This document shows, in pieces, positions 10,216 through 53,532 of a stretch of DNA of 58,443 bases. Source of the DNA: Myxococcales bacterium (GTDB taxonomy: Bacteria > Myxococcota_A > UBA9042); assembly GCA_023954815.1 (NCBI GenBank), contig JAGSHB010000015.1:1-58443 (forward strand). The letters run 5' to 3'. Numbering within the stretch: the stretch's first letter is position 1; each line of letters starts with the position of its first letter. A program made the position numbers and the translations under genes. A model generated the notes under the pieces. It did no database searches and was not told the origin of the DNA. It saw only the letters and a list, made by a program, of their open reading frames with translations.

Positions 10216-10245
10216 ATTCCTCTCCCTTTTCAATCCGACCCTCTC

Positions 10246-10275
10246 AACATACAACAATCCACGACCACGATGCAA
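10246..10275 (-). promoter_or_regulatory. Candidate promoter for the 10215 gene
   Basis: On the minus strand, TTGCAT (10275-10270) and TATGTT (10251-10246) are separated by 18 nt, resembling -35/-10 boxes. Transcription would start about 25 nt before the ATG at 10215. It lies in the 240-bp divergent gap between two surface-protein genes. Pattern matching only. Confidence 0.35.
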
Positions 10276-10406
10276 AGGCGCTTCGTTTGCAGGGATATGC
10301 GGCACGTCTCGCGTCGTCCCCGTGCTATCGACTGGATGGCAGCGGACATGTAGCGATCGGGCGTGACGGATCTGGAGGGGGGATTGCCACCACATCTGAC
10401 ACGCGG

Positions 10407-10435
10407 TTGCGAGTGGTCGAGGTGACACCTATGCT
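10407..10435 (+). promoter_or_regulatory. Candidate promoter for the 10456 gene
   Basis: TTGCGA (10407-10412) and TATGCT (10430-10435) are separated by 17 nt, with the ATG of the lipoprotein gene at 10456 preceded by GGGGG. The boxes resemble those of the opposing candidate promoter at 10246-10275, so the two genes may share sigma-factor use. Pattern matching only. Confidence 0.35.
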
Positions 10436-10455: not shown

Positions 10456-12141
10456 ATGAGGTTGAGTCGGTTCGGTGTGGTTGCTTTGAGTGTCGCATTC
10501 CTGAGTGGATGTGGTGGCGAAGATCCAAAACCGTCCGGGACGACGGCGGCGGACACTGGGATCTCGTTTGGGTTTGACACAGGCAGTGTCTCAGACGTCG
10601 GAGAGGACACCGACTCCTGCCCGGGCGGCGCAGGGTGCGAGTGCTCCGGCAACGAGGACTGCGATCTTGCGGTTTGTCTAGCAACGAAAGACGGCAGCAA
10701 GTGCGCCGCCGCGTGCACCGACAGCAGCTCGTGTGAGAGCGGGCAGGCTTGCACCACGGTGACCACCGCAGGAGGAGACTCGCCGACCGTGTGCGTCGAC
10801 GCGGCCGTTCATCTTTGTGACCCATGCAAATCCAACAGCAGCTGCGGCGCGCCTGGTGCTGCGGGGGCGAAGTGTGTGCAACGTGGGGACGACGGCAGTT
10901 TTTGCGGCGTCGCTTGCGGAGACGGCGCCTGTCCGAGCGGAACGACCTGCCAAGATGTGAAAGATATCGAAGGCAAGGCGGTTAAACAGTGCATGCCCGC
11001 AGATGGGGCCGCTTGCACCTGCAGCCCACTGGCGATCGCCAACGAATTATCGACGGCGTGCGGTGGCGAAAAAGGCTGCGCTGGCGTTCGCGCCTGTCTG
11101 GCAGACGGAAAGGAAGGCGCTCCAAAGGGCGGCGGATTGTCGAGCTGCCTGGGCGCGAAGTCGTCGGCGAAAGAGTCCTGCAACGGCACGGATGACGACT
11201 GTGACGGCCAAACCGACGAAGACACCACCTGTGACGACGACAACGCTTGCACCATCGACGCGTGCGAGGCTGGCAAGTGCAGTCACACCAAGAATGCGGC
11301 TGCTTGTGATGACGGGGATGCGTGCACCGAGAATGACTCGTGTGCCACCGGAACCTGTGTCGGCACTAAGAAAGCCTGCGACGACAACAACACTTGCACG
11401 ACGGATGCCTGTGACATGAAGACTGGGTGTAGCCACGCGCCAGCGCAGACCGGCAGCTGCGATGACGGCGATGTCTGCACCTCGGACGACAAATGCACCG
11501 CTGGCAAGTGCGCCGGTACGGCTAAAGATTGTGACGACAACAATGCCTGCACGGCCGATAGCTGTGCAGCTGGAACATGTACCAACAAGGCCTCAACTGG
11601 CTCCTGCGACGATGGCAATCCGTGTACGGAGGGCGATTTGTGCGGCACAGACAGCGGCAGTGGCCAGGTCGCCTGCCTGCCTGGCAAGACCAAATCCTGC
11701 GACGACAGCAATCCCTGTACCAAGGATACGTGCGATAAGGTCTTGGGCTGTGTGGGGACGGTAGATGTGAGCATCACCCAGCCTTGCTACACCGCCGCAC
11801 CCAAAACCAAGGGCGTCGGTGAATGCACCAGTGGCACTCAGGCCTGTAAGACCGGTGGTGGCTTTGGCGCCTGCACCGGGGAGGTCGTGCCGGCGCTCAA
11901 AGAGATCTGCAACACCCTAGACGACGACTGCAACGGCAAAACGGACGACAACTGCACCGGTGGCGGCGCGCCCGTTTTGGTCTGGCGCCTCGGATCTTCA
12001 ACGATTTCTGGCGGAAATGGCTCGGGCGTACAAGCGCGCATCTTCCTCGGCGGCGATGGGTTTGGGAGCGGGCCAGTGGCGGGTGCAAGTACCACGGTGG
12101 AGATCGGTTTTTATGCATGGCTGGCGTCATGGCTGAAGTGA
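10456..12141 (+). CDS. Cys-rich lipoprotein with MopE motifs and alternating A/B repeats
   Basis: A 561-residue lipoprotein (lipobox FLSGC, lipidated Cys19), predicted to be exported and membrane-anchored. Residues about 50-185 form a Cys-rich module shared with the lipoprotein at 37050 (C-x-P-C then GxxCGxAC, CPxGxxC, KQCxP). A MopE-type motif ESCNGTDDDCDGQTDED lies near 241, and a variant, ICNTLDDDCNGKTDDNC, near 485. Between them are seven DDxNxCT repeats strictly alternating between C-x5-C-x4-C and C-x5-C-x5-C spacing. About 60 cysteine-free residues end the protein. MopE motifs are known from metal-binding surface proteins; the function here is unknown. It is followed after 17 bp by the P-domain paralogue, so the two are probably co-transcribed. 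Confidence 0.8.
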   Translation: MRLSRFGVVALSVAFLSGCGGEDPKPSGTTAADTGISFGFDTGSVSDVGEDTDSCPGGAGCECSGNEDCDLAVCLATKDGSKCAAACTDSSSCESGQACTTVTTAGGDSPTVCVDAAVHLCDPCKSNSSCGAPGAAGAKCVQRGDDGSFCGVACGDGACPSGTTCQDVKDIEGKAVKQCMPADGAACTCSPLAIANELSTACGGEKGCAGVRACLADGKEGAPKGGGLSSCLGAKSSAKESCNGTDDDCDGQTDEDTTCDDDNACTIDACEAGKCSHTKNAAACDDGDACTENDSCATGTCVGTKKACDDNNTCTTDACDMKTGCSHAPAQTGSCDDGDVCTSDDKCTAGKCAGTAKDCDDNNACTADSCAAGTCTNKASTGSCDDGNPCTEGDLCGTDSGSGQVACLPGKTKSCDDSNPCTKDTCDKVLGCVGTVDVSITQPCYTAAPKTKGVGECTSGTQACKTGGGFGACTGEVVPALKEICNTLDDDCNGKTDDNCTGGGAPVLVWRLGSSTISGGNGSGVQARIFLGGDGFGSGPVAGASTTVEIGFYAWLASWLK

Positions 12142-12158
12142 CACTGGTCGGAGGATTT

Positions 12159-13874
12159 ATGCCTAAGAAGATCGCGATATTGGTTCTGGTTGGTTTCGTG
12201 CTGGGCGCCGTTCCGGCGTACGCTGGCGCACCGTCGACGCTGCTCTATGAGGGCGCGCTAACGACGGCGACGGGGGCGGCGGCTCCCTCTGGCAACTACA
12301 ACATCACCTTCAAGTTGTACGCCACGGAGGCCGGGCAAACACCGTTTTATACGGAAGCTGCCAAGGTGGCGGTGGCGGGTGGGCGCTTGAGTCACACGCT
12401 CGGTGCGAGCACGGCGCTCAATCTGCAGACGCTCGCTGGCGCGTCGCAGGTGTGGGTCGGCGTGACCGTCGGCAACAATAAGGAGCAGAAACGTCGGCAG
12501 CTGCACTCGGTCGCCTACGCACTGCACGCCAAGCAGGCCGAGCTGGCGCTGGGCCTGGCTTGCACCGGTTGCGTCAAAGCCTCCTCATTGAAGTGGGATA
12601 GCAACATCGACCTCGCTGGCAATAGCATCAAGGCGCAGCAGCTCACAGCCAAGAACGTCACCAGCCAGACAGTGGTTGCCCAAGAGTTCATCGGCGATGG
12701 CAGCAAGTTGACGGGCATTAAAACGCCAGCCGGCTCGTGCCCAAGCGGGCAATTTGTCACCGGTATCGACCAGGGAGGCAACCTGGTCTGCAAAGCCTCC
12801 GGCGTCTCTGGCGGAGCGCTAGCGCAGGTCTCCAATGGCGCGTTGAGCAACGAGTTTTCCGAAGTATTCAACGCGCCGACGAAGAACATCCCTATCCCTG
12901 ACAATACCGGCCTCGATGCTTTGAGCACCATCAAGATGCCCAGCGTCGGCACCGCCCAGAAGTTGACGTTGAAGATCGAGTTAACCAACTCCGACCTGAG
13001 CAACCTATCGATTGTCCTGCTGCCGCCCAATGACAAAAAGGTCGGCTACGTCGTCTGTGATCCGTGTGGCCCGAACGACAGTGTGAAGACCTTCAGCAAG
13101 AGCTACAGCGCCAAGCTGCACAAGGGTGATTTGAGCGTTTGGGCTGGAAAGAATCCGCAGGGGTTCTGGAATCTCAAGGTGAAGGACACCGCCCTGTGCG
13201 CCATCAATAAGCAGGGCAACCAGGCGCTGTGTGATGCGAAGAAGTCGACCGACGGCCTGCTGAAGAACTGGAGCCTGTCCGTCAATACAGTCAGCAACAC
13301 CGATGTGCTGGTCGCCGGCACCTTGGTGGCTCAGGGTGGCGTCCAGGTCGGTGCGACCTCGGCTCCCTGCACCGCCAAGCGCAAAGGCGCGCTGCGCTAT
13401 CTCGACGGCGATGGCCTGCAGGTCTGCAACGGCACGTCTTGGTCGAGCGCGGTGGGCTCCAAGGTCATCCACTTTCTGGGTACGTGTACCTCATCTGGCA
13501 GCTCCAGCACGCGCACGTTCTGCCTCAACAAGACCCTCGCCAACACCGCCAGCGCCTACCTCACCGTGTCCAAGACCAACTCGGGCAGCGCCACGGACTT
13601 CAACACGGGGCGGGTGGTGTTCAAGAAGAAGGGGTACTACCGCGTGACCTTCAACCAACGCAGCCGCGGCAGTATGCAGGCTTGGATGTACAAGAACGGC
13701 AGCCAGATTCAGTACTTCTATCACCAGAACTACAGCAGCTACTACGGCAGTATGAGTCACAGCCGGATCATCTGGTTCGATGTGAACAACTACTTCAACA
13801 TCAAGTTCTACAGCAACTACAACGCCTGGTACGCCAACGACACGACGCTCGAAGTGGAGTTCTTGGGCTTATAG
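12159..13874 (+). CDS. Secreted P-domain-like surface protein, paralogue with C1q-like C-terminus
   Basis: A 571-residue secreted protein. A signal peptide (ILVLVGFVLGAVPAYA) is followed by the same N-terminal domain as the 7732-10215 product (YNITFKLYATEAG, RRQLHSVAYALHA), the LACTGCVKASSLKWD linker, and EFIGDGSKLTGIKTP, which is nearly identical in both. The P/Homo-B-like domain is at about 243-350 (IPDNTGLDALSTI, LPPNDKKVGY, GFWNLKVKDTALC). The last 130 residues (GRVVFKKKGYYRVTFNQR, many aromatic residues) look like a C1q/TNF-type jelly roll instead of the fourfold repeats of its paralogue. Function is unknown; surface display or adhesion is likely. Start ATG 12159 has GGAGGA 3-4 nt upstream. 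Confidence 0.75.
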   Translation: MPKKIAILVLVGFVLGAVPAYAGAPSTLLYEGALTTATGAAAPSGNYNITFKLYATEAGQTPFYTEAAKVAVAGGRLSHTLGASTALNLQTLAGASQVWVGVTVGNNKEQKRRQLHSVAYALHAKQAELALGLACTGCVKASSLKWDSNIDLAGNSIKAQQLTAKNVTSQTVVAQEFIGDGSKLTGIKTPAGSCPSGQFVTGIDQGGNLVCKASGVSGGALAQVSNGALSNEFSEVFNAPTKNIPIPDNTGLDALSTIKMPSVGTAQKLTLKIELTNSDLSNLSIVLLPPNDKKVGYVVCDPCGPNDSVKTFSKSYSAKLHKGDLSVWAGKNPQGFWNLKVKDTALCAINKQGNQALCDAKKSTDGLLKNWSLSVNTVSNTDVLVAGTLVAQGGVQVGATSAPCTAKRKGALRYLDGDGLQVCNGTSWSSAVGSKVIHFLGTCTSSGSSSTRTFCLNKTLANTASAYLTVSKTNSGSATDFNTGRVVFKKKGYYRVTFNQRSRGSMQAWMYKNGSQIQYFYHQNYSSYYGSMSHSRIIWFDVNNYFNIKFYSNYNAWYANDTTLEVEFLGL

Positions 13875-21279: not shown

Positions 21280-22283
21280 TGAGCAATAAGCCCCAGCCGA
21301 CGCTTTGCCGCATGGACCCGCTGCACGCTCTCCAAGACCCGGTCACGATTGAGCTGGCCGCTGTGCCACGCGCGCTCAAGTCCGGCGAGCAGCGCGGGGT
21401 GGGCGTCATGCTCAGTACAGGACAAGAGCACATCACAGCCGGCGTTGATGGCGCGCACACTGACATCGACCAAGTCTTCGTTTCCGTCTCGGATTCCGCG
21501 CATCGCGAGGTCGTCTGTGAACAATAAGCCTTTAAAACCAAGCTCATGGCGCAAAAGCTGCGTGCAGATCCGGTGGGAAGTTGTCGCTGGCTGGCCGGGG
21601 TCCAAGGCGGGATAGACCACATGGGCCGTCATCAGCGTGGGGATCTGGGCAGCGATGGCCGCGCGAAACGGCGCCAACTCTACCGCGTCTAGCCGCTGCC
21701 GATCGACATCGACGATTGGCAGCTCGAGGTGGGAGTCGCGGGCTGTATCGCCATGACCCGGAAAGTGCTTGCCGCATCCCAGAACGCCCGCGTCTTGCAG
21801 CCCCGCAGTCCAGGCGAGCGCCAGCTTGGCGGCAATCGTTGGATCCGCTGAAAATGAGCGGTCACCGATGATGGGATTGCTCTCGCAGGTGTCGACATCC
21901 AGAACTGGGGCGAAGTCGACGTTGACACCGAGATCAGCTAACTGCCCGCCCATCCACTTGCCGTGAGCTCGCAGCGCGTTGAGGGAGAGGTCGCGCTCGA
22001 AACGCTGACCGAGGTCTCGCGCCGACGGCAGAATCGGTCCGTGAGGCGGCCCCCATTGCTGGACGCGGCCACCTTCTTGATCCATCGCCACCAGCATGGG
22101 GGTCGGGGCCCGCCGCTGGAGGTCGGCGATCAGCTGTCGCACTTGCGCGTGCGTCTCGATGTTGGGGCCAAAGAGAAAGACGCCGCTGATGTCGTAGTGT
22201 TCGATCAGCTCCGCAAGGGCGGGCAGCACCTGCAGACCGGGGAACCCAAGCATCACCAACTGACCGACCGGAGAGATGTTCAT
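21276..22283 (-). CDS. nagZ: Glycoside hydrolase family 3 beta-N-acetylhexosaminidase (NagZ-like)
   Basis: A 335-residue GH3 enzyme of the NagZ type, which removes N-acetylglucosamine from muropeptides in cell-wall recycling. Motifs: AMDQEGGRVQQW, DFAPVLDVDT, GCGKHFPGHGDTARDSHLEL (the loop with the general acid/base His-Asp pair) and LLFTDDLAM with the nucleophile Asp. A frame extends to TTG 22361, but ATG 22283 matches the usual family start (SPVGQLVMLGFPG) and leaves 114 bp for divergent promoters with the amidase gene. Lying next to a cell-wall amidase and a symporter, it suggests peptidoglycan turnover or feeding on other cells' walls. Confidence 0.9.
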   Translation of the reverse strand: MNISPVGQLVMLGFPGLQVLPALAELIEHYDISGVFLFGPNIETHAQVRQLIADLQRRAPTPMLVAMDQEGGRVQQWGPPHGPILPSARDLGQRFERDLSLNALRAHGKWMGGQLADLGVNVDFAPVLDVDTCESNPIIGDRSFSADPTIAAKLALAWTAGLQDAGVLGCGKHFPGHGDTARDSHLELPIVDVDRQRLDAVELAPFRAAIAAQIPTLMTAHVVYPALDPGQPATTSHRICTQLLRHELGFKGLLFTDDLAMRGIRDGNEDLVDVSVRAINAGCDVLLSCTEHDAHPALLAGLERAWHSGQLNRDRVLESVQRVHAAKRRLGLIAQ

Positions 22284-22397
22284 GTCGCCAGCCTGCAAGT
22301 AGCCACGGAAATTCGCAATGCTGTGGCCAGGGAACAAAACAGACCGCAAATTCGGGTCCAAAGCTGCTATCCTCCGCGCGCGATCGGAGGTCAGTAC

Positions 22398-24443
22398 GTG
22401 CTTATGCCCACTTATCAGCTGCTATCACGCGCCAGCCGACCGCTTCCCTCTCGTTCTTTGCTCCGTTTGGGGTTGTTGCTGACCCTGCTCCTTATCGCGA
22501 GCGGTTGTATGGACGACCACGCGGGTCATCACCACATCCCTCCTGAGGTCGAGGCGGCTGCCCAACTGCAGGTGTTTAACCATCACCTCGGTGGGGCTGA
22601 GTACGGGCCGGCGAGCTGGGTCAAGAGTCCGAACTACTCCACGGCGTACCGCGGCAAGGGCAAGATCACGACGGTCGTTGTGCACACCGTTCAAGGCTCG
22701 TACAAGGGCTGTATCTCGTGGTTTCAGAACACCAAATCGAAGGTGTCCGCGCATTATGTCGTGAGCAAGACCGGCCAGATCACGCAGATGGTCAAAGAGA
22801 AGGACATCGGCTGGCACGTGGGTTCGCACAATGGCTACACGGTGGGTATCGAGCACGAAGGTTGGGTCTCCGATCCCAAGTGGGCGACGCCGAAGATGGT
22901 GGCCGCTAGCGCCAAGCTGACTTGCTACCTGGTGAAGAAGTACGGACTCAGCGCGACCAAGACCCACATCAAAGGGCACGTCGAGCTACCCAATCAGACT
23001 CATTCTGACCCCGGCAAACATTGGCCGTGGGCCTCCTACCTCTCCCAGGTCAAGAAGTGCGTCGGCGGCGGTGGCGGCGGTCCGGTCTGCCCGAGCAGCT
23101 GTGACGACGGCAAGGTGTGCACCAATGACGCGTGCGTGTCCGGCAAGTGCAGCTACTCCTGGGCCAACGGTAAGGTCTGCTGGGACGGAGACGCCTGCAC
23201 AGCGGGCGAAAAGTGCAGCTACGGCAAGTGCGTCGGCGGCAAAATCGTCAAGAACTGCACCGACAACAACCCGTGCACCAACGATGGCTGCAAGGCTGGC
23301 AAATGCACCCACTACGCCAATAGCAACAGCTGTAGCGACGGCAATTCATGCACCACGGGGGACAAATGCAAGTCCGGCAGCTGCATCGGCGGCAGCGGCG
23401 GAAAGTGCAACGATGGCAACCCGTGCACCACCGATAGCTGCGGCACTGGTGGCTGCAAGCACACCCCCAATTCGAAGTCATGTTCGGACAATAACCCTTG
23501 TACGACGGGCGATAAGTGCCAAAACGGCTCCTGCAAAGCGGGCGCGCTGAAGTCCTGCAGCGACGGCAATCCGTGCACCACCGGGGACGTCTGCAACAAG
23601 AAGACGGGCCAGTGCGATGCGGGCGTTCAGAAGAACTGCGGCGGCAGCGACCCCTGCTCCTCTGGCGTTTGCGACCCGAAAAATGGCGGCTGCAAGTCGG
23701 CCAATGAAGGCGCTGCCTGCGACGACAAGAACCCGTGCACCACGGCCACCGTCTGCAAATCCGGCGTGTGCAAGGCTGGCTCGGCTCAGGGTTGCGATGA
23801 CAACAACCCCTGCACCGACGATTCGTGCACCACCGGCGGCTGCTCGCACAGCAACAACAAGATGTTCTGCGATGACGGCGAGTCTTGCACCCTGGGGGAC
23901 GCCTGCAAGGACGGTATCTGCCGCGGCACGCTCATCAGCTGTGACGATGGCAACCCCTGCACGACAGGTCAGCAGTGCGTCTTTGGAAAATGCTCGAAGG
24001 GCAAGCTGGTCTGCGATGACGGCAACGACTGCACGGCGGATAGCTGTGATGCTGGCAAATGCAGCCACGGCGCCATCGTGGTGGACTGCGACGACGGCGA
24101 TAACTGCACCGTGAAGGAGTACTGCGACACCGGCGTGTGCAAGGGCGGTCAGGCCAAGCTCTGCGATGACGGCGACCCGTGCACCGAAGACCGTTGCGTG
24201 TCTCAGCAGGGTTGCGTCTTCCCCAACATCTGCGGTGGCGGCGGTGGTGGTGCAGCGGACGGGCAGGGCCTCGGCGCGGATGCAGGCGGCACCTCAGGCC
24301 CACAGCCCGGATTCGTGCCCAACGCTTCGCCTTCTAGCGGTTGTTCAACGAGCCACAGCGGAACAACCGGCGGCCTATGGCTCATGCTCTTGGCCGCGAT
24401 GGCCATTGTCTGGCGCCGCCGTCAGTCCATCACGTGCAGCTAA
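22398..24443 (+). CDS. N-acetylmuramoyl-L-alanine amidase lipoprotein with 15 Cys-rich repeats and MYXO-CTERM-like tail
   Basis: A 681-residue protein. The N-terminus has a type II signal peptide (lipobox LIASGC, Cys37). Residues about 75-230 are an Amidase_2 domain cleaving the amide bond between N-acetylmuramate and L-alanine; Zn ligands fit His in TTVVVHTVQG, His in KGHVELP and Asp in HSDPGKHWPW. Then come 15 units of C-x-D-G-N-x-C-T type, in forms A and B. A glycine-rich spacer leads to SSGC, a hydrophobic helix (LWLMLLAAMAIVW) and RRR, the layout of MYXO-CTERM sorting signals. GTG 22398 is preferred over ATG 22404 because GGAGG lies 7 nt before it. It overlaps the next gene by 10 nt. Confidence 0.88.
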   Translation: MLMPTYQLLSRASRPLPSRSLLRLGLLLTLLLIASGCMDDHAGHHHIPPEVEAAAQLQVFNHHLGGAEYGPASWVKSPNYSTAYRGKGKITTVVVHTVQGSYKGCISWFQNTKSKVSAHYVVSKTGQITQMVKEKDIGWHVGSHNGYTVGIEHEGWVSDPKWATPKMVAASAKLTCYLVKKYGLSATKTHIKGHVELPNQTHSDPGKHWPWASYLSQVKKCVGGGGGGPVCPSSCDDGKVCTNDACVSGKCSYSWANGKVCWDGDACTAGEKCSYGKCVGGKIVKNCTDNNPCTNDGCKAGKCTHYANSNSCSDGNSCTTGDKCKSGSCIGGSGGKCNDGNPCTTDSCGTGGCKHTPNSKSCSDNNPCTTGDKCQNGSCKAGALKSCSDGNPCTTGDVCNKKTGQCDAGVQKNCGGSDPCSSGVCDPKNGGCKSANEGAACDDKNPCTTATVCKSGVCKAGSAQGCDDNNPCTDDSCTTGGCSHSNNKMFCDDGESCTLGDACKDGICRGTLISCDDGNPCTTGQQCVFGKCSKGKLVCDDGNDCTADSCDAGKCSHGAIVVDCDDGDNCTVKEYCDTGVCKGGQAKLCDDGDPCTEDRCVSQQGCVFPNICGGGGGGAADGQGLGADAGGTSGPQPGFVPNASPSSGCSTSHSGTTGGLWLMLLAAMAIVWRRRQSITCS

Positions 24444-26941: not shown

Positions 26942-29900
26942 CTAGGGCGCGGGGGTCTTGCCGCCATCGCCGATCGGGCCACTGACTTTCACGCTCTTAC
27001 AGGAGGTGATGCCTGTACTTGTCGACTGCACAGTGTAGCTCTGATTGCCCTGGGTCGTTTGGCCAACCATTGTGTAGTACCCGGTCGATGCGTTGTCCTC
27101 GATACCGTAGAAATACGTGTGGTAGGACGGGTGACCGAAGTAGTACGTGCCAGCAGCCGTTCCGGTGTATCCCGTTCTCACCACGTAGCCGCGGTAGCGA
27201 TTCGACTTCGGATCGCGGTAGGCGCCGGCGAGCACTGTTCCACTGCCGTAGTTGTCGATGCCGCGGAAGTAGTCCGAGCCCGTGCTGCCGAACTTCCGGT
27301 CGTAGATCTTATTCGGGACGTGATAGTACCCCTTCACCAGCCATGCATCGTAGCCATTGGTCGTGACCGATGTGTTCTGAGATTGACCGGCGAGCCACAG
27401 GTATGAGCTGTAGGGCTTGACTGCGTAGAACACGTCGTAGCCCTTGCCGCCGTACCACCAAGTGCTCACGTTGGAGCCTGAACTCGACCAACGGGTGACA
27501 ACGCCATCGTACGCGCCGTACTTGGGCTGATTGGTCCGACCAACCGCATAAATGTAGCCCTTCGAGTAGGTGATCGCATAGAACTCATAATTGTACGACG
27601 CGGTCAGAACCTTGCCGATCTTGTATTTGCCCCAGACGTAGCCACCGTTGTTGTTCAAGCGAACAACCCAACCCGAGGCGCGGCCAGGATTGACGCCGTA
27701 CGTGGTGCCGGAGACGTACATGTTGCCCGCTCCGTCGTGAACGATGCCGGAGAACCTGTCTGTCGTCTTCGATGCGATGCGGTACGTGTTGTAGAGAATC
27801 TTACCGTTGATATCGAAGCGGATGATCCAGCCAACATAGCCGTAGGTGCTGTTGAGGTACCGGTATCCGACTGCAATGAACGTGTTCGCAGTCTTCGTCG
27901 CTGTGACGCCCAGCAACTGGTCTGTGGTGGTGCTCGCTGCGACGGTCTTGGCCCAAATGACCTTGCCCGACTTGTCACGGCGAACGATGTAGCCCTCGTA
28001 GCCCTTGCCACTGACGTATGTGGTACCGACTGCGACGGTGCCGAGATCCGATGCACGCGCGACACTGAACAGGTAGTCCGTGCTGCTGCCGCCGTACGTG
28101 CTCGTCCATACCCGGCACTTGCAGCTACCACTTGTGCAGATGCTGTAGCTACCCGCTTCGCACGTGTAGTTCTCGTACGCAGGCGAGTGCGTGCAGGCGC
28201 CCGTCTTGGCGTTGCAGCCGTCGGTTGAGCACTTGGTGCTGTCAGCGCAGTTCTTCTTCACACCTGGCTTGCACAGACCCTTGTAGCAGGTGTCTTTCAG
28301 GGTGCAGGCGTTGCCGTCCGAGCACGGCGCCGTGTTGATGAGGTACTGGCACTTGCCGGTGCTCGCGTTGCAGCTATCGGTCGTGCAGACTTTGCCGTCA
28401 TTGCAGACTGTGGTCTTGCCCACGCAGGTGCCCTTGGACGTGCATGTGTCGCTGGTGGTGCACAGCTTGCCGTCGGAGCAGGGGAAGCCACTCAAGATCT
28501 TGTAGACACAGGCGCCAGTGGTCTTGCTGCAGCTGTCGGCCGTACAGGCCTTCTTGTCATTGCAGAGCACGGGCTTGCCGACGCAAATACCGCTGGTGTT
28601 GCAGACGTCTGGCTTGGTGCACAGGTTGCCATCACTGCATGACGTGCCGGCCGTGATCTTGTTGTAGCACTTACCACTGACGCAAGTGTCAGCGGTGCAA
28701 GAGTTCTTGTCGTTGCAGTCTGTGTGGATCTTGCACTGGCAGGTCCATGGCCCACCCAAACACTTGCCCGTCTTGCAGACATCCGGCTTGGTGCAAGCTT
28801 GCCCGTCCGAGCAAAGTGTCCCGTCTTTCTTGGGTTTCAACCCACAATTTGCAGTCTTCGGGTCACACACACCCAAGCTGCATGCCGTGCCTTTGCAGAG
28901 TTTCGGGTTGGTGCCCTTGCATGCGCCGGACTGGCAGGTATCCGTCTGCGTACAGAGGTTGGCATCGTTGCATTTGAGACCGTTCGCTTTGGGCTTCTTA
29001 CCGCACGCGCCGCTCTTGGGATCGCAGATGCCTGTGTTGCACTGGTCACTGGCGCAGCTTTTGGGGTTCGTCCCTTTGCAGACGCCGGCGGTATCGCACT
29101 TGTCCGTTTGAGTGCACAGGTTGGCGTCGTTGCAGGAGGTGCCAGATGGCGCCGCTTTCAAGGCGCACTTATTGCCCTTTTCGTCGCAGTAGCCAGCCTT
29201 GCACGCGTTCAGATTGCTCTGGCAGATCCGGGCCTTGCCCGAGCCACAGGTGCCCTTGCCGTTGCAGATTTCGTTTGTGGTGCAGTATTGGCCATCGTTG
29301 CATTTGGTGCCCGACGCCTTGGGTTTCTTGACGCATTGATTCTTCGTCTCGTCGCAGATACCGGTGTTGCACGTGTCAGCTGCGGAGCCGCAGTTCTTCG
29401 CAGGTCCGGCGGTGCACTTACCGGCGCTATCGCACTTGTCGTTATCCGTGCAGAATTTACCGTCGTCACAGGTCTCGCCCGCTTTCTTTGGCTTCTTGCC
29501 GCACTTGCCAGTGCTGGCCGTGCAAATGGCGAAGTTGCACGCATCATTGAAGCTGCTGCAGTCCTTCTGTGTACCAGCGATGCACGTACCCTTCTTGCAG
29601 CTGTCTTTCTGGGTGCAGAGGCTCTTGTCAGCGTCGCAGACTGTGCCATCGGCCTTGGCGGTGGTGCCGCACTTGCCGGTCTTGGCGCTACATGCGTCGT
29701 TTGTGCATGGGTTGTTGTCATTGCAGACCTTGGCGGTGCCGCCGCTGCATGAACCCTTGTTGCACTTCATGTTCAAGACGCAGAGGTTGCCACCCTGACA
29801 CGCCTTGCCATCCTGCGGCGCGGCGTCGAACTTGCAGTCGCCCTTCACGCAGGAATCCGTCGTGCATGGGTTATTGTCGTTGCACTCTTTGTTGCTCGTG

Positions 29901-31558
29901 CAGCCGCAGCCCTCAACTGTCTTGTCGATGGCCGTGGTCACGCACTTGCCCGACTTGCACGCTGTGATGGTGCATTTGTCGTCGTCTTCGCACTTGGCCT
30001 TGTCGTCCACGTTGTTCTTGCAGCCCGTCTTGGGGTCACAGGATTCGACGGTGCACGGGTTGTTGTCGTTGCAGGTCTTGATGCCGGGCGTGTTGATGCA
30101 CTTGCCCGTCTTTGGGTCGCAGGAATCAAACGTACAGCCGACGCCGTCGTCGCAGGGCTTCTTTTGGCCGACGCAGCCGCCGTTTTCACAGGTGTCCTCT
30201 TCGGTGCAGGTCTTGCCGTCGTCGCAATCGCCGGGAGCCGCGGGGTGCACACAACCCTTGAGTGGGTCACAGTTGTCGGCGGTGCAGGGGTTGCCATCAT
30301 CGCACTTCTTGTCCACTTCGCCGACGCAGGCCGCTTCTTTACAGGCGGACTTGCTGGTGCAGGTGCTGCCGTCGTCGCAGACTTTGCCTTCCTTCAGCGC
30401 GACCATCCCGCACTGCCCCGTCTTCACGTCGCAAGTGTTGACGCCGCACTCGCTGTCGCCGCCTTTGTCGCAAACAACCTTCTTGTCGAGGTCGACGACG
30501 CACTCCTCCAACTTCACATCGCAGAAGTAGGGCTGACAGATAGTGCTTTCCTTGCAGTCTTTGTCCTCTTTGCACTTGCAGATATTCGACGTCGCCACGC
30601 ACTCGCCCTTGGGATTACATTTTTCTCCCTCAGTGCACTTGTCGTCATCGTCACAGGCGCTGCCATTCCGAATCGTCGTCGCGGTGCAGCCAACGGCCAG
30701 ATCGCAAGCCATGTCGAAGCAGGATCCGTCCTCCTCGCAGACGGTATCCTTCGCCTTGTGCACACAGCCCGTCTTCGGGTCGCAGCTATCGTCGGTACAA
30801 GCGATCCCGTCATTGCAGGACTCATTGCCGGAGGTCTTGCACTTGCCCTCTTTGCAGGTGCCGTCGCCGGTGCAGGGGTTGCCGTCGTCACAGTCGACTG
30901 CGGCCGTGATCGGGTCGTGCTTGATCTCCGTATTCTGGTCGCAGTAGTCCTTCGTGCAAGGGTCCCCATCGTCGTAGGCGGTGTCTGGCGCAGCGCCGCA
31001 CTTGCCTTCCTGGCACCAGTTGCCGCAGACGCCGATGCCGCACGCGGTCTCGTCTGCTTTCGCTGTCACAGAGCATTCTTTCGCGAGGTCGCACGCGGCG
31101 ATTTCGCACTCGCCGATGCTCTTGCCAGCGTCACACGGCGTGCCGACGGGTTTGGCCATCAGGTTGCAGCCACCCTTGTCGTCGCATCTCGCCACTTCGC
31201 ACGCGCTCTCGGTCAGTGTCGGGTCGTTGCAGGTCGAGCCGGTCGCCTTGAAATCCCACGCGCAGATGCCCTCGTTGCAACGCGGCAAACTGCACGGCGT
31301 CTTTCCGAGCTCGTTGTTGCAGTCGAAGTCCGTCGTGCACTTGGTGCCGGTCGGCACGTCCGGCTTCACCGCCGTATCCACGCCGACACTCGTGTCCGTT
31401 TTTCCGCCGGTATCCACGCCGGTACTGGTGTCCATCAGCGGGCCATCGATCGACTCTTCGATCGGTTGGCCGCATGCGGCGGACATGACTGCGATGGTGG
31501 CCAGGGCGGCCAGCAATCCACGGTTGGTGGGAATAATTCGGGAAAGTCGAATGTTCAC
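26942..31558 (-). CDS. Giant Cys-rich repeat lipoprotein with C-terminal seven-repeat beta-propeller
   Basis: A 1538-residue predicted lipoprotein. The signal peptide ends at SAAC (Cys29), a slightly unusual lipobox, followed by a Thr/Asp-rich linker (TDTSVGVDTAVKPDV). Residues about 60-1148 are an estimated forty Cys-rich units, such as CDDGNPCTADNCDPLKGCVH and CNDANLCTQTDTC. The last about 390 residues have few cysteines and contain seven repeats of the form (T/S/Y)D-x-(F/L)-x-x-(V/I), then AVG-x-T, then G-(Y/W)-(I/V)-V-R, as in SBBP-like beta-propellers. Function is unknown; a long disulfide-stapled stalk with a binding head is inferred. GTG 31558 has GGAG 6 nt upstream and directly precedes the signal peptide. 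Confidence 0.85.
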   Translation of the reverse strand: MNIRLSRIIPTNRGLLAALATIAVMSAACGQPIEESIDGPLMDTSTGVDTGGKTDTSVGVDTAVKPDVPTGTKCTTDFDCNNELGKTPCSLPRCNEGICAWDFKATGSTCNDPTLTESACEVARCDDKGGCNLMAKPVGTPCDAGKSIGECEIAACDLAKECSVTAKADETACGIGVCGNWCQEGKCGAAPDTAYDDGDPCTKDYCDQNTEIKHDPITAAVDCDDGNPCTGDGTCKEGKCKTSGNESCNDGIACTDDSCDPKTGCVHKAKDTVCEEDGSCFDMACDLAVGCTATTIRNGSACDDDDKCTEGEKCNPKGECVATSNICKCKEDKDCKESTICQPYFCDVKLEECVVDLDKKVVCDKGGDSECGVNTCDVKTGQCGMVALKEGKVCDDGSTCTSKSACKEAACVGEVDKKCDDGNPCTADNCDPLKGCVHPAAPGDCDDGKTCTEEDTCENGGCVGQKKPCDDGVGCTFDSCDPKTGKCINTPGIKTCNDNNPCTVESCDPKTGCKNNVDDKAKCEDDDKCTITACKSGKCVTTAIDKTVEGCGCTSNKECNDNNPCTTDSCVKGDCKFDAAPQDGKACQGGNLCVLNMKCNKGSCSGGTAKVCNDNNPCTNDACSAKTGKCGTTAKADGTVCDADKSLCTQKDSCKKGTCIAGTQKDCSSFNDACNFAICTASTGKCGKKPKKAGETCDDGKFCTDNDKCDSAGKCTAGPAKNCGSAADTCNTGICDETKNQCVKKPKASGTKCNDGQYCTTNEICNGKGTCGSGKARICQSNLNACKAGYCDEKGNKCALKAAPSGTSCNDANLCTQTDKCDTAGVCKGTNPKSCASDQCNTGICDPKSGACGKKPKANGLKCNDANLCTQTDTCQSGACKGTNPKLCKGTACSLGVCDPKTANCGLKPKKDGTLCSDGQACTKPDVCKTGKCLGGPWTCQCKIHTDCNDKNSCTADTCVSGKCYNKITAGTSCSDGNLCTKPDVCNTSGICVGKPVLCNDKKACTADSCSKTTGACVYKILSGFPCSDGKLCTTSDTCTSKGTCVGKTTVCNDGKVCTTDSCNASTGKCQYLINTAPCSDGNACTLKDTCYKGLCKPGVKKNCADSTKCSTDGCNAKTGACTHSPAYENYTCEAGSYSICTSGSCKCRVWTSTYGGSSTDYLFSVARASDLGTVAVGTTYVSGKGYEGYIVRRDKSGKVIWAKTVAASTTTDQLLGVTATKTANTFIAVGYRYLNSTYGYVGWIIRFDINGKILYNTYRIASKTTDRFSGIVHDGAGNMYVSGTTYGVNPGRASGWVVRLNNNGGYVWGKYKIGKVLTASYNYEFYAITYSKGYIYAVGRTNQPKYGAYDGVVTRWSSSGSNVSTWWYGGKGYDVFYAVKPYSSYLWLAGQSQNTSVTTNGYDAWLVKGYYHVPNKIYDRKFGSTGSDYFRGIDNYGSGTVLAGAYRDPKSNRYRGYVVRTGYTGTAAGTYYFGHPSYHTYFYGIEDNASTGYYTMVGQTTQGNQSYTVQSTSTGITSCKSVKVSGPIGDGGKTPAP

Positions 31559-31639
31559 GACGTGCTCCGTGGCCCGCGATGTGGGCGCGCGTCGGCAAAA
31601 AGCCGTTCCAGTAGGCCCAAGGCGGGCAGGGTCCGCGGT

Positions 31640-31669
31640 ATCGTACTGAGGCCCTGGCCACCCTGTCAA
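31640..31669 (-). promoter_or_regulatory. Candidate sigma-70 promoter for the giant lipoprotein gene
   Basis: On the minus strand TTGACA (31669-31664), a perfect -35 consensus, and TACGAT (31645-31640) are spaced 18 nt apart. Transcription would start near 31633, giving a leader of about 75 nt before GTG 31558. It falls in the gap after the CPBP protease gene. Confidence 0.5.
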
Positions 31670-48623: not shown

Positions 48624-49586
48624 ATGAAAGTCCTCATCGTGGGTGCCGGCGCTGTCGGGCAGGCCTATGGCTACCATCTACAACGTGGCGGGGCCGAGGT
48701 GGGCTTCTTCATTCGCGAGAAGTATCGGGACGAACTCGCCGGCGGCGTGGTGGTCTACCCGCTCAATCGCAAGACAGCGTGGGAGCCCGAGCCATTCGCC
48801 AACTACTCACTACACAGCGATTGGCAGACCGTCAGCGAAACGCAGTGGGATCAGGTCTGGTTGGCCGTGCCGTCCACCGCGATCCGCATGGGTTGGTTGG
48901 GCGACATGATGGCTGCCGTTGGCGATGCGACCATCGTCTCGTTGCAGCCAGGTCTCGATGACCAGGACGTGCTGCTCGCCCATGTGCCAGCCGAACGTTT
49001 GGTGCAGGGCGTCATCACGCTGCAGAGCTTTCACGCGCCCCTGCCGGGGGACGCGGACGTAGAACCCGGGATTGCGTGGTGGTTTCCGCCGCTGAGTCCC
49101 TTGCCGTTGGGTGGGCCCGCCGCTGCGGTCACGTCCGTCGCTGCGGTATTGAAGAAGGGAGGTTGCCCCGCTTCACCCAAGCCAGGCAAGCAAGTGACCG
49201 CGGTGGGCGCCTCGGCTCTCATGATGCCGATTATCGGCGCGCTGGAGACCGCCAACTGGTCGTTTCGCACCCTGCGGACGACCGGTGCGCTGGCTATGGG
49301 GTGCGATGCCGCCAGACAGTGTGCGGCCATTGTCGCGAAAGCCCAAAACAAGCGAAAACCCTTGATTGTCGGCCTGATTCGTCCGTGGCTGCTAGGAGTC
49401 GTCCTGCGCGTGGCGCCACGATTCACGCCCTTCGATCTCGAGAAGTTCTTGGCCTACCACTTCACCAAGGTCGGTCCGCAGACGCGCTTGATGCTGGACA
49501 CCTACATCGACAGAGGCCATGCGATGAAGATGCCGACGGACGGCGTCAAGCGCCTCAAGATGGGGCTATCGACCCCGCCGGCCTAG
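48624..49586 (+). CDS. Ketopantoate reductase / ApbA-like family protein
   Basis: A 320-residue protein with the ApbA/PanE N-terminal dinucleotide fold (KVLIVGAGAVGQAYGYHLQ). Beyond the Rossmann part, canonical PanE catalytic motifs are weak, so this is a reductase-like family member of unknown substrate, not a safe PanE call. It lies 27 bp after the dehydrogenase and ends with a stop that overlaps the opposite Cys-rich gene's stop in the palindrome CTAG. AGGAG precedes ATG 48624. Confidence 0.7.
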   Translation: MKVLIVGAGAVGQAYGYHLQRGGAEVGFFIREKYRDELAGGVVVYPLNRKTAWEPEPFANYSLHSDWQTVSETQWDQVWLAVPSTAIRMGWLGDMMAAVGDATIVSLQPGLDDQDVLLAHVPAERLVQGVITLQSFHAPLPGDADVEPGIAWWFPPLSPLPLGGPAAAVTSVAAVLKKGGCPASPKPGKQVTAVGASALMMPIIGALETANWSFRTLRTTGALAMGCDAARQCAAIVAKAQNKRKPLIVGLIRPWLLGVVLRVAPRFTPFDLEKFLAYHFTKVGPQTRLMLDTYIDRGHAMKMPTDGVKRLKMGLSTPPA

Positions 49587-52500
49587 AAGCAGCTGGTGCC
49601 GAGCTTAGGTTTGAAGACGCAGCCCACCTTGGCGTCGCAGCTGTCGGACGTGCAGTCCTTGTCGTCGTCACAATCCAAACTGTCGTGCTCACAATCTTTG
49701 TCCCCGCTGTCGCATTTGTCTTTCGTGCAGGGCTTGCCGTCATCGCACCTCAGGACCGTCGCCTTGCACTGGCCGAGGCCATTGCACGCCGCTGTCTTCG
49801 CGCACCAACCGGCGCTGCACGGCGTGCCCTTTGGCTTGGGCGTCTCTTCGCAAGTCGCCTTGCCGCCAACGTTGACACAGTTGCGGAACTCGCAGGCGTT
49901 GTTGCTGCAGCTCATGATGCTGCCGCCGGCGCACTTGCCCTGGGAGTCGCACTTGGTGTTGGAGGTGCATGGATCGCCGTCGCTGCACGAATTGCCCTCG
50001 TTCGATTTGGCTTCGCACTTGCCGTTGTTGCAGACATCCGTGGTGCAGGGGTTGCCGTCGTTGCAGTGACTGTCCTTCCCGCAGCCGCAGCCGGCGCCAG
50101 GTTTGAAACTGCCCATACAGATCCCTGTTGCGTCACACTGGTCCTTGTTCGTGCACTTGTTTCCGTCATCACAGCCCGCGCCTGCTGTGACCGGTTTGTA
50201 GGCACACTTGTCTTCCGATGCGCTGCAGTACGCCGTGTAGCACGGCCCAGGCGGCGTGCAGGTGATGGCCACGGACCCTTGGCAGCCGCCCGTACCATCG
50301 CATTTGTCGCCGGAGGTGCACTTGGTGCCGTCGCTGCAGGACTTGCTGCTAGGCGCAGGTTTGGTGGTGCAGTTGCCAGTCGTTGGGTCGCAAGCCCCGA
50401 TCGCGCACGTCGTCGCGTCTGGGCACTTCTTCGTGCCACTTGCGATGCACTTTCCGGTCTTGCAGTACGTGCCCGCCGTGCACTTGCTCCCGTCGCTACA
50501 GGTCGTGCCATCTGCCTTGTTCGTGGACTTGCAGCTGTCGGTTGACTCGTCGCAGCTGCTGGTCGCACAGGCCGTCCCCAGACAGGTACGCGGCTCCAAC
50601 ATCACGCACGCGCCCTTGCCGTCACAGTTGTCACCAGCGGTGCAGTACTTTCCGTCATTGCACTTCGTTCCCTTGGTGAACGGCACCGCGATGCAGGAGT
50701 ACGAGCTCGCTGAGTCGGAATGACAGGTGCCCTTCGCACACATGGTGTGTTTGCCCGTGCAGTCCGGCGGCGCGCCCTTTTGGCAGGTACCCGACTTGCA
50801 GAAGTCGTTGGTTGTGCAGCCATTGCCGTCCGCGTCGCAGCCGGTGCCGTTGGGTTTCGTCGTCAAGCCGCACTGGCCGGTCTTGGGGTCGCACACGCCC
50901 TTCTTGCAGGCGCCGTCGATCCCTGAGCAGTCCTTTGGCTTGTTACCTGCCTTACAGGCGCCCGCGTCGCAAATCCCGCTGCCAGCGACCTGACATTTGT
51001 CTCCCGTATCGCACGCGACCTTCTTGCTGGCTGCGATGGCTGTGTTTTGGCACTTGCCGCTGGCGCACTTGTCAGCCGTGCAGCCGTTGCCGTCGCTACA
51101 GTCGCCGTCAGCCTTACACTCGCACGTGAACGTCGACTTGCATTGGCCGAGGCCGCACTTCCAGGTCGTGCACGAGTCCCCGTCTTTGCACTTGCCACCC
51201 TCATTGGCCACGGTCTGCAAACAGCCCGCCGAGGGTGAGCAGGCGCCGGTTGTGCACGGGTTGCCGTCATCGCACGTCTGGTCAGCGGCCTTGAATTTGC
51301 AGTCGCCCGTGGACTTGTCGCAGCTGTCGACGGTACAGGCGATCTTGTCGTCGCAGGCCTTCGGTGTGCCGACGCAGCCACCCTTGCTGCAGACGTCACT
51401 GGTCGTGCAGGCCGAGCCATCATCACATTTAACGCCTTCCTGAGCGCCATAAGTGCAGCCGCCGCTCGCATTGCAGCTGTCCTTGGTACAGGCATTATTG
51501 TCATTGCAATCGACGTCCTTACCCGCCGCGCATTCGCCCTTAGTGCAAGTCGTGCCTTTCGTGCAAGCGTTGCCATCGAAGCACGTTTTGCCCTCATTTT
51601 TAGGCTCATCAACGCACTTTCCGCTGGTCGGATCGCAGACGCTCTGGCTGCAGGTCGAGCCGCTGGTCGTACACGAGACAACCGACTTCGGATCCACGAC
51701 ACAGCTGCCTTTTTCGCACTTCATCGCGCCGAGGCAGAGGTTGGCCGACTTGCAGTCGGCTTCGCTTTGACAGCTGCAGGTCGACGTGCCGGTGCACGCG
51801 CCCTTGCCGTCGCAGTGGTCGTCCTTGGTGCACGTGTTGCCATCGTTGCAGGTGAGCGTCACCGAGGACGCACCCATCACAGCGCAGCCGACCTTTGCAT
51901 CGCAGCCATCCTCGGTACACGGGTCGCCATCGTCGCAGACGCCATCGTTGGCCGTGTGGGCGCAGCCCTTGTCCTTGATGCAGGAGTCCGTCGTGCAGGT
52001 CACGCCGTCACTGCAGTCGAGCGCAGTTGCTGCGCATTTACCCTTGTCGCAGTGACCCTCGCCGGTGCAGGCGTCCCCGTCATCGCACTTCTTCGTGAGG
52101 TCGGTGATGGGATCATGGCGCACGGCCTGGCCGTTGTCGCAGTAGTCCTGCGTGCACGGGTCGCCATCGTCGTAGGCGGACTGTGGCGTGTCGGAGCATT
52201 TGCCGCTGATGCACTGCTTGCCACAAGCGAAAAAGCCACAATTGGTGCCATCTTTGGCAGGCGACCCGACGCACTCGGCCTTGGCATTGCACGTGAACGC
52301 TTGGCACTGATCGCCGCCGCCGTCATCGGGCTTACAGGTTGAATCTACCGGCCGTTCAGTCAATTGGCAGCTTCCGTTGACGCAATCGGCGACCTTGCAT
52401 GGGGTCAACCCGAGGACCTTGCCGGCGCAGTCTCCCTTGGTCAGGCACTGCACCGCGTCAGCTGGCTTGTTCGCGTCCTCTTTGGGGGTGTCAGTGTCTT

Positions 52501-52744
52501 TGTCATCGGCGCCGGTGTCAGACTGTTGCCCACCGTCGGCGATGACGTCGGTGACTTGGCCGGTATCAGCGAGCTTGTCGAGGTGTGCCTTGACCTCCTG
52601 TTCTGATGCGATGTCTGGCAGACAGCCCAAGGGCGCCATCAGCAGGATGAGCAGCACCCAACGCGATAGCTGCCAGCGTTCGGCCACGACTTGACCTCGA
52701 CCTGCGACCCTGAGGTGCTGGTCCATATTCCTTGTCGTCTTCAT
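49583..52744 (-). CDS. Giant Cys-rich repeat lipoprotein, no C-terminal head domain
   Basis: A 1053-residue predicted lipoprotein: signal sequence WVLLILLMAPLGC (lipidated Cys41 when started at ATG 52744), an Asp/Lys-rich linker (GADDKDTDTPKEDANK), then Cys-rich units to the very end (CDDGDACTGEGHC, CDDKIACTVDSC, CNDGNPCTTDVC, CTSDSCDAKVGCVF). Unlike its relatives it has no propeller, enzyme or sorting tail; it stops at KLGTSCF, where a further unit would begin. Function unknown. Its start overlaps the TPR gene stop (TGATG), so they form a pair. ATG 52726 is a possible alternative start. Confidence 0.8.
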   Translation of the reverse strand: MKTTRNMDQHLRVAGRGQVVAERWQLSRWVLLILLMAPLGCLPDIASEQEVKAHLDKLADTGQVTDVIADGGQQSDTGADDKDTDTPKEDANKPADAVQCLTKGDCAGKVLGLTPCKVADCVNGSCQLTERPVDSTCKPDDGGGDQCQAFTCNAKAECVGSPAKDGTNCGFFACGKQCISGKCSDTPQSAYDDGDPCTQDYCDNGQAVRHDPITDLTKKCDDGDACTGEGHCDKGKCAATALDCSDGVTCTTDSCIKDKGCAHTANDGVCDDGDPCTEDGCDAKVGCAVMGASSVTLTCNDGNTCTKDDHCDGKGACTGTSTCSCQSEADCKSANLCLGAMKCEKGSCVVDPKSVVSCTTSGSTCSQSVCDPTSGKCVDEPKNEGKTCFDGNACTKGTTCTKGECAAGKDVDCNDNNACTKDSCNASGGCTYGAQEGVKCDDGSACTTSDVCSKGGCVGTPKACDDKIACTVDSCDKSTGDCKFKAADQTCDDGNPCTTGACSPSAGCLQTVANEGGKCKDGDSCTTWKCGLGQCKSTFTCECKADGDCSDGNGCTADKCASGKCQNTAIAASKKVACDTGDKCQVAGSGICDAGACKAGNKPKDCSGIDGACKKGVCDPKTGQCGLTTKPNGTGCDADGNGCTTNDFCKSGTCQKGAPPDCTGKHTMCAKGTCHSDSASSYSCIAVPFTKGTKCNDGKYCTAGDNCDGKGACVMLEPRTCLGTACATSSCDESTDSCKSTNKADGTTCSDGSKCTAGTYCKTGKCIASGTKKCPDATTCAIGACDPTTGNCTTKPAPSSKSCSDGTKCTSGDKCDGTGGCQGSVAITCTPPGPCYTAYCSASEDKCAYKPVTAGAGCDDGNKCTNKDQCDATGICMGSFKPGAGCGCGKDSHCNDGNPCTTDVCNNGKCEAKSNEGNSCSDGDPCTSNTKCDSQGKCAGGSIMSCSNNACEFRNCVNVGGKATCEETPKPKGTPCSAGWCAKTAACNGLGQCKATVLRCDDGKPCTKDKCDSGDKDCEHDSLDCDDDKDCTSDSCDAKVGCVFKPKLGTSCF

Positions 52745-53532
52745 CAAAACCGCCCGGTGAGAGTCCACCCCATGGTGTGAGGCGAGAGGGTAGGTTGCAG
52801 CTGCCAGGCCGTCTTTTTGGGCTTGTCTTTCAACCAGAGCCAGCCGGTCCAAGCGAGAAAGCCCACACCGATGGCGGTGCTGCCGATGGCTACTTTCTGC
52901 CAAGCGCGCGCAGACGCAGCCGATTCCTTGTGGCTGTCCGCTTGGGCCTGGTTCTGCACAGTCTTGTTGAGCTGATCGGCACTCAGATCTGACGCGATAG
53001 AGCGAGCGACCAGCCACGAGACTGCGCCGCCCAGCACCAATCCACCGCCCGTTGCTGCCTGCCAAATCGGGAAGCTCGACCCCGTCACCGCGCCTTTCTT
53101 TGCGCCGGATGTCTTAGGCTCGCTCTTCATGTGTTTGTCGAGCTTGAGCACCTTTTTTTCGGCGTAGGTGCGGTTTTCGCCGGGAATATCAGGGAGCTCC
53201 AGGTACATCGAGTACAAAGCGTAGGCCCGGCGGTGCTGGCCGGCTTTCTCGCGGGCAGTGGCTGCTGCGTAGAGAAGTTGCGGCCGCTTGATGATGGCGT
53301 ACGCGTCCATGAATGCCGCGGCAGCTTCCTTGTAGAGCGAACTCTGAAAATAGGCGCGCGCTTCGGTCGCCCGCGCTTCGGCCCGAGAGAGCTGAGTCTT
53401 CGTCGGTTTGGCCTGTGCTTCTGGGCTAGTCAAAAGGGGGGCTGCCGTGGCGAACAACACCACGAGCGAGCATCGGATACCGAATACGCCGTTGCGTCGT
53501 ACCACCGTGCCGGTTCGACTCCGTTCCTTCAT
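52744..53532 (-). CDS. Exported TPR protein with C-terminal membrane helices
   Basis: A 262-residue protein: signal peptide (SLVVLFATAAPLLTSPEAQA), TPR-like helices at about 45-130 (RATEARAYFQSSLYKEAAAA, AATAREKAGQHRRAYALYSM), a Lys/Ser linker, then two hydrophobic segments (GGGLVLGGAVSWLVA and VAIGSTAIGVGFLAWTGWLW). Such TPR-plus-membrane proteins are common in myxobacterial envelopes, with unknown partners. Overlap with the Cys-rich lipoprotein start suggests the pair work together, perhaps in its assembly or export. ATG 53532 has GAGG 7 nt upstream. Confidence 0.7.
   Translation of the reverse strand: MKERSRTGTVVRRNGVFGIRCSLVVLFATAAPLLTSPEAQAKPTKTQLSRAEARATEARAYFQSSLYKEAAAAFMDAYAIIKRPQLLYAAATAREKAGQHRRAYALYSMYLELPDIPGENRTYAEKKVLKLDKHMKSEPKTSGAKKGAVTGSSFPIWQAATGGGLVLGGAVSWLVARSIASDLSADQLNKTVQNQAQADSHKESAASARAWQKVAIGSTAIGVGFLAWTGWLWLKDKPKKTAWQLQPTLSPHTMGWTLTGRF

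What the first reader, a model, noticed from the sequence alone, without database searches (positions are those of the whole stretch)
10456..12141. Strictly alternating A/B disulfide repeat
In the 561-aa lipoprotein, seven DDxNxCT units alternate ABABABA. A units have C-x5-C-x4-C spacing (e.g. CDDNNTCTTDAC) and mostly end C-x-H or C-x-N. B units have C-x5-C-x5-C (e.g. CDDGDVCTSDDKC) and mostly end C-x-G. The amidase at 22398 and the giant proteins show mixed but related A/B order. A two-unit super-repeat implies a regular fold in which neighbouring units pair differently. I do not know of a description of this dyad.
Basis: seen in the sequence. Interest (0 to 1): 0.75.

Follow-up and report, generated by a model that had tools for sequence, protein, structure and literature searches.

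The report
Alternating two-type disulfide-stapled repeat rods
An uncultured Myxococcota-type bacterium builds over a thousand copies of a small cysteine-rich "slime-mould" repeat into long surface rods in which two repeat types alternate almost without exception, and patterns of lost cysteines show how neighbouring repeats are probably bolted together by disulfide bonds.

Summary
In detail: the 561-aa lipoprotein has seven four-cysteine units in order ABABABA. They are Pfam Dicty_CTDC repeats (PF00526), a known kind. The alternation is a grammar that extends well beyond this protein. Of 351 arrays with at least 6 units, 220 alternate strictly (4.4 expected by shuffling), 53 are pure A, and B-B neighbours are nearly absent (2 of 2347 joints in the GTDB loci, 479 expected). 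Adjacent same-type units are hardly more alike than units from other arrays, so recent dyad duplication is not the cause.

The idea that neighbouring units pair differently is not supported. Cysteine co-loss indicates one scheme: C1-C4 within a unit, and C2 of unit i to C3 of unit i+1 as a staple between units. The C1-C4 evidence comes from A units only. AlphaFold2 gives beta-hairpins for both types, with the first strand one residue longer in B. The all-A model resembles the Entamoeba Gal/GalNAc lectin heavy chain, whose 2026 paper reports the same scheme, though its wording implies the opposite staple direction. An a/b module dyad was already described in eggshell-membrane CREMP. Verdict: new variant of a known repeat kind, probably a rigid surface spacer. 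The purpose of alternation is inferred.

The parts
10456..12141 (+). 561-aa predicted lipoprotein carrying the CTDC array
   Evidence: translation; Pfam PF00526 E 3.4e-12, 46.4 bits against cut-off 27
10456..10512 (+). signal peptide with lipobox-like LSGC (Cys 19)
   Evidence: read from sequence; no signal-peptide predictor was run
11179..11220 (+). CNGTDDDCDGQTDE motif (MopE-like by eye) just before the array; its second Cys could serve as N-cap Cys (inference)
   Evidence: sequence; Pfam gave no match for it
11230..11304 (+). unit 1, type A
11305..11376 (+). unit 2, type B
11377..11457 (+). unit 3, type A
11458..11529 (+). unit 4, type B
11530..11604 (+). unit 5, type A
11605..11697 (+). 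unit 6, type B (long C3-C4 loop)
11698..11751 (+). unit 7, type A, C1 to C4
11224..11589 (+). ABABA segment modelled with AlphaFold2
   Evidence: mean pLDDT 94.9
21966..24440 (+). Amidase_2 protein with an A/B array
26945..31669 (-). 1575-aa protein with CTDC arrays, alternating stretches and C-x-C N-caps
49586..53065 (-). 1160-aa protein with CTDC arrays

Best explanation
The array is an extended rod of four-cysteine beta-hairpins of the Dicty_CTDC kind on a secreted lipoprotein. Each hairpin is closed by C1-C4. Each neighbour pair is stapled by C2 of unit i to C3 of unit i+1. An extra Cys six residues before C1 (C0) supplies the partner for the first C3 at array starts or after a broken joint, and some last units drop C2 (shown by sequence statistics, not by experiment). 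B is a variant hairpin with one more residue between its two staple cysteines and a linker about two residues longer in front of it. Five against six residues should put the two staples of a unit on opposite faces of the strand in A and on the same face in B, so (AB)n and (A)n would be rods of different twist or curvature, and two B units in a row would misplace the chain unless the linker lengthens (inferred). Likely role: a stiff, protease-resistant spacer or stalk that holds domains such as the amidase away from the surface (inferred). Oxidation is probably done by the genome's DsbA and VKOR-DsbA proteins (presence shown, link inferred).
For: C1-C4: lost together in 19 units (all type A, some orthologous) against 0.09 expected; C1 alone 3, C4 alone 1. 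Staple: when C2(i) is lost and C3(i+1) kept, exactly one linker Cys in 15 of 15 joints; both lost, none in 6 of 6; both kept, 0/2/4 linker Cys in 5759 joints and odd in 24. The opposite pairing, C3(i)-C2(i+1), has no co-loss. Four B-type last units lack C2. C0 occurs in 314 of 736 array-starting A units and 9 of 444 B units. AlphaFold2: C2 lies just before and C3 inside one extended strand, so a C2-C3 bond within a unit is unlikely. Linker before A is 6-7, before B 8-10. B-B: 0 of 397 joints in held relatives and 2 of 2347 in GTDB loci. Fold match of the all-A model to Entamoeba lectin heavy chain, E 6e-4, prob 1.00, whose published scheme is C1-C4 within and C2/C3 between domains (PMC12948311). 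33 DsbA-family and 3 VKOR matches in the genome.
Against: No experimental structure or disulfide map exists for these proteins. The co-loss cases come mainly from all-A arrays; direct cases in A-B joints are few, and B's C1-C4 is by analogy. PMC12948311 as worded gives the opposite staple direction. The fold match has low TM-score (0.30-0.34) and only the all-A model reaches significance; the ABABA model does not (E 0.72). B-B joints do exist in the own genus (23 own, 13 in G002). Rod shape and function are untested.
Confidence: 0.72

Rival explanations
1. Alternation is only history: the dyad is the unit that was copied, and arrays keep its order without any structural need.
For: Two pure modes, (AB)n and (A)n, follow genome families, as lineage-specific amplification would give.
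Against: Same-type neighbours are 50%/45% identical (A/B), against 47%/43% between arrays, and under 1% of neighbours exceed 80%. Order survived wide divergence, and B-B is depleted while A-A is tolerated. Linker length tracks the type of the next unit.
Confidence: 0.2
2. A and B differ in disulfide pairing, for example C1-C3/C2-C4 in B.
For: Different C2-C3 and C3-C4 spacing; the apparent C2-C4 co-loss in B in a first pass.
Against: Those cases proved to be misaligned Myxococcus-type disulfide repeats (CDDGN..GDGC). Terminal B units lack C2 exactly as the staple model predicts. The N-cap Cys precedes A units followed by A or B equally often, 101 and 103.
Confidence: 0.1
3. The acidic CDDxN loops bind calcium and the arrays are calcium-dependent adhesins rather than passive spacers.
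For: Asp at C1+2 is invariant in both alignments; acidic loops are typical of extracellular calcium sites (general knowledge).
Against: No calcium-binding family was matched. The Asp and Asn could simply cap turns. Not tested.
Confidence: 0.15
4. Parser artefact: alternation arises from how units were called.
For: Early regular expressions double-counted B units and misread C-x5-CNDGNPCT as B.
Against: The corrected caller scores units without regard to neighbours; P0001 and window proteins were checked by eye; pure-A arrays are recovered as such.
Confidence: 0.02

Closest known systems
Pfam PF00526 Dicty_CTDC (Dictyostelium slime-mold repeat)
   Same: Family score above the curated cut-off; four Cys per roughly 24-aa unit, CDDGNPCTxDxC core; A units are this repeat.
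   Different: B units have one more residue between C2 and C3 and alternate with A; here over a thousand candidate copies in one bacterial genome.
[quoted passage not shown]
   Same: Related to slime-mould SP75; C-X4-C-X5-C-X8-C modules; arrays (a)n, (a-b)n and (a-b-b)n; fully oxidised and well folded by NMR; connectivity called a future goal in 2011.
   Different: CREMP a and b differ in the trailing spacer (X6 or X11), not in C2-C3 spacing, and b-b is allowed. Homology to the bacterial units was not tested here, because no CREMP sequence was at hand.
Entamoeba Gal/GalNAc lectin heavy chain pseudo-domains (PMC12948311, PDB 9gja-9gjg)
   Same: Four-Cys small beta pseudo-domains in a chain; C1-C4 within, C2 and C3 to the two neighbours; Foldseek match of the all-A model.
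   Different: No detectable sequence match; described as three-stranded and forming an arc; staple direction as worded is the opposite of ours; A/B alternation is not mentioned in the passages read.

Membership tests
Pfam PF00526 Dicty_CTDC | Profile score above the curated gathering cut-off | tested here: met
   46.4 bits against 27, six stretches
Pfam PF00526 Dicty_CTDC | Tandem units of about 24 aa with four conserved Cys | tested here: met
   24-31 aa units, four Cys each
Pfam PF00526 Dicty_CTDC | C2-x4-C3 spacing | tested here: inconclusive
   Met in A units, not in B units (x5)
CREMP a/b module dyad | Two module types of one repeat family in strict alternation | tested here: met
   220 of 351 arrays strictly alternating
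CREMP a/b module dyad | a and b share Cys spacing and differ in trailing spacer X6/X11; b-b occurs | tested here: not met
   A and B differ in C2-C3 spacing, and B-B is almost absent
Entamoeba Hgl pseudo-domain chain | C1-C4 bond within the domain | tested here: met
   By co-loss in type A units, 19 against 0.09 expected; not by experiment, not shown for B
Entamoeba Hgl pseudo-domain chain | C2 and C3 bonded to the two neighbouring domains | tested here: met
   Parity and co-loss
Entamoeba Hgl pseudo-domain chain | C2 to the previous and C3 to the next domain, as worded in PMC12948311 | tested here: not met
   Here C2(i)-C3(i+1): 6 co-losses against 0 for the reverse
Entamoeba Hgl pseudo-domain chain | Similar fold | tested here: inconclusive
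   All-A model E 6e-4, prob 1.00, TMq 0.30-0.34; ABABA model E 0.72
NCBIfam curated families, including Myxococcus disulfide repeats | Any model match | tested here: not met
   No family at E up to 10

The most novel reading that the evidence does not exclude
B is a phase-flip unit. The one extra residue between its staple cysteines reverses the face from which the next staple leaves, so that unit order encodes rod geometry: (A)n and (AB)n are two rod forms and B-B is sterically forbidden at normal linker length. This would be a sequence code for the shape of a covalently stapled protein rod.
Probability: 0.35. Interest if true: 0.75.

Novelty: new variant of a known kind. Interest (0 to 1): 0.56.

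Why it matters
The disulfide connectivity of CTDC-type repeats was stated as an open goal for CREMP in 2011 (PMC3068167), and no solved structure was matched by sequence here. Natural cysteine losses in thousands of bacterial units now give a testable connectivity that fits the scheme reported by cryo-EM for an amoebal lectin, and suggest a common architecture for repeats in slime moulds, bacteria and perhaps eggshells. The near-forbidden B-B joint is a simple rule that could be tested in engineered stapled rods. The class holds natural arrays of 50-76 alternating units as starting material.

Tried and rejected
First regular expressions inflated B-A and B-B counts and were replaced. Apparent B C2-C4 co-loss came from misaligned CDDGN-type disulfide repeats and was dropped. 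Raw intra-unit loss tables were noisy because C1 is often shifted by one residue (C-x6-C) and were replaced by counts of Cys in intervals. A general 3-Cys C-terminal cap was considered, but the regular expression also caught degenerate ordinary units, so only the four clean C2-less last units are used. Profile search of the PDB gave only chance hits (fibrillin, RNase 7). Search of viral structures gave nothing. No plasmid match.

Full report
What is there. The ORF at 10456-12141 (+) encodes a 561-aa protein with a lipobox-like LSGC near its N-terminus and a seven-unit array, ABABABA, at aa 259-432. Pfam places it in Dicty_CTDC (E 3.4e-12, 46.4 bits, cut-off 27). NCBIfam has no model for it and no PDB chain matches by sequence. 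Three further window proteins carry such arrays: an Amidase_2 protein and two large proteins. The first-look filter of the family search found 1616 candidates in the own genome; 150 were scored and all exceeded the cut-off. All 52 genomes tested from the class, and 167 of 284 from the phylum sample, have matches at E <= 0.001.

Is the alternation real. With a caller that scores each unit without regard to its neighbours, and labels shuffled within runs as the null, alternating joints were 830 of 923 in the own genome (518 expected), 335 of 397 in held relatives (197) and 2263 of 2347 in loci from GTDB genomes (1279). B-B joints were 23 (164 expected), 0 (68) and 2 (479). Among 351 arrays of at least six units, 220 alternate strictly (4.4 expected), 53 are pure A and 78 are mixed; the longest strictly alternating array has 76 units. 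The GTDB loci were found with an A-B-A-B-A query, so they favour alternating arrays; the own-genome and relatives sets were found with the Pfam family and show the same. By genome, the own family alternates at 90-95% and f6, f9 and f11 similarly, while f5, f7 and f10 hold nearly pure A arrays. A tolerates A or B beside it; B almost always needs A. The exceptions lie mostly in the own genus, and many B-B joints have linkers of 10-11 residues.

Not recent copying. In 124 strict arrays of ten or more units, the next unit of the same type is 50% (A) or 45% (B) identical outside Cys, against 47% and 43% between arrays; under 1% of neighbours exceed 80%. Order has outlasted sequence similarity. This does not exclude old dyad amplification.

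How A and B differ. A: C2-x4-C3, C3-C4 spacing mostly 5-6, linker before A 6-7. B: C2-x5-C3, C3-C4 spacing 4 in 91%, linker before B 8-10. The linker follows the type of the next unit: A to A 6, A to B 8-10.

Disulfide connectivity from natural losses. C1-C4: in units whose neighbours are intact, both were lost in 19 cases, C1 alone in 3, C4 alone in 1, both kept in 4883 (expected both lost 0.09). All 19 are type A and several are orthologous pairs, so independent events are fewer. Staple: for consecutive units I counted Cys in the linker. C2(i) lost and C3(i+1) kept: exactly one linker Cys in 15 of 15. Both lost: none in 6 of 6. Both kept: even number in 5759, odd in 24. So C3(i+1) takes one partner from its N-terminal side, normally C2(i), otherwise an extra Cys (C0), usually six residues before C1. 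The pairing C3(i)-C2(i+1) shows no co-loss. Four last units of arrays, all type B, lack C2 (L075, L107, L161, L233). C0 marks 314 of 736 array-starting A units and 9 of 444 B units, and is followed by A or B equally often (101 and 103). Most joint cases are in all-A arrays; for A-B arrays the scheme rests on the N-caps, the terminal B units and one B-to-A joint (L173).

Structure. AlphaFold2 on the window ABABA segment with 90 natural sequences gave mean pLDDT 94.9, and on an all-A segment with 74 rows 97.3. Each unit is a beta-hairpin; A strands have 6+6 residues, B 7+6. The ABABA model has no significant PDB match (best E 0.72). The all-A model matches the heavy chain of the Entamoeba Gal/GalNAc lectin (E 6e-4, prob 1.00, TMq 0.30-0.34). 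The paper on that structure (PMC12948311) describes pseudo-domains with four Cys, C1-C4 within and C2 and C3 to neighbours. Our connectivity was inferred before that paper was read. Its wording assigns C2 to the previous and C3 to the next domain, the reverse of ours; whether this is a real difference or wording I could not check.

Precedent. CREMP in eggshell membrane (PMC3068167) has a and b modules in (a)n, (a-b)n and (a-b-b)n arrays, is related to slime-mould SP75, and folds well with all Cys oxidised; its disulfide connectivity was a stated goal. So alternation of two module types in a CTDC-like repeat is not a new idea. The bacterial dyad differs in what distinguishes the types and in the B-B ban.

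Likely working. A lipoprotein-anchored or secreted rod of stapled hairpins used as a spacer. The domain partners, such as Amidase_2 in the window, and the rich disulfide machinery (33 DsbA-family and 3 VKOR matches, no DsbB) fit this, but no function was tested. The phase-flip meaning of B is inference from residue parity.

Noticed in passing
own genome G000, contigs C58, C113, C231, C273, C291: 33 DsbA-family matches, several ORFs with two or more DsbA copies in one frame; three VKOR matches lie in ORFs that also hold a DsbA match; no DsbB.
   Followed up: partly
L189:6597-10193 (+), classmate genome G023: A long all-A array of many near-identical 24-aa repeats (CNDENACTNDSCDPASGCKYTEVN type), suggesting recent amplification, unlike the diverged A-B arrays.
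   Followed up: no
window 7732-10428 (-) and 12117-13874 (+): The genes on either side of the lipoprotein encode related-looking secreted proteins (shared 'FIGDGSKLTGIKTP' and 'VVLPPNDKKVG..CDPCG' segments); the downstream one has a weak P_proprotein match below cut-off and overlaps the lipoprotein gene by 25 bases.
   Followed up: partly
window 26945-31669 (-) and 49586-53065 (-): Degenerate A units without the CTxD core but with four Cys sit between B units at 53-56 aa spacing.
   Followed up: partly
L127 ORF and several other loci: A B-like variant with a longer C2-C3 stretch (CDDGDACTGAGGSDVCSAGTC) recurs.
   Followed up: no
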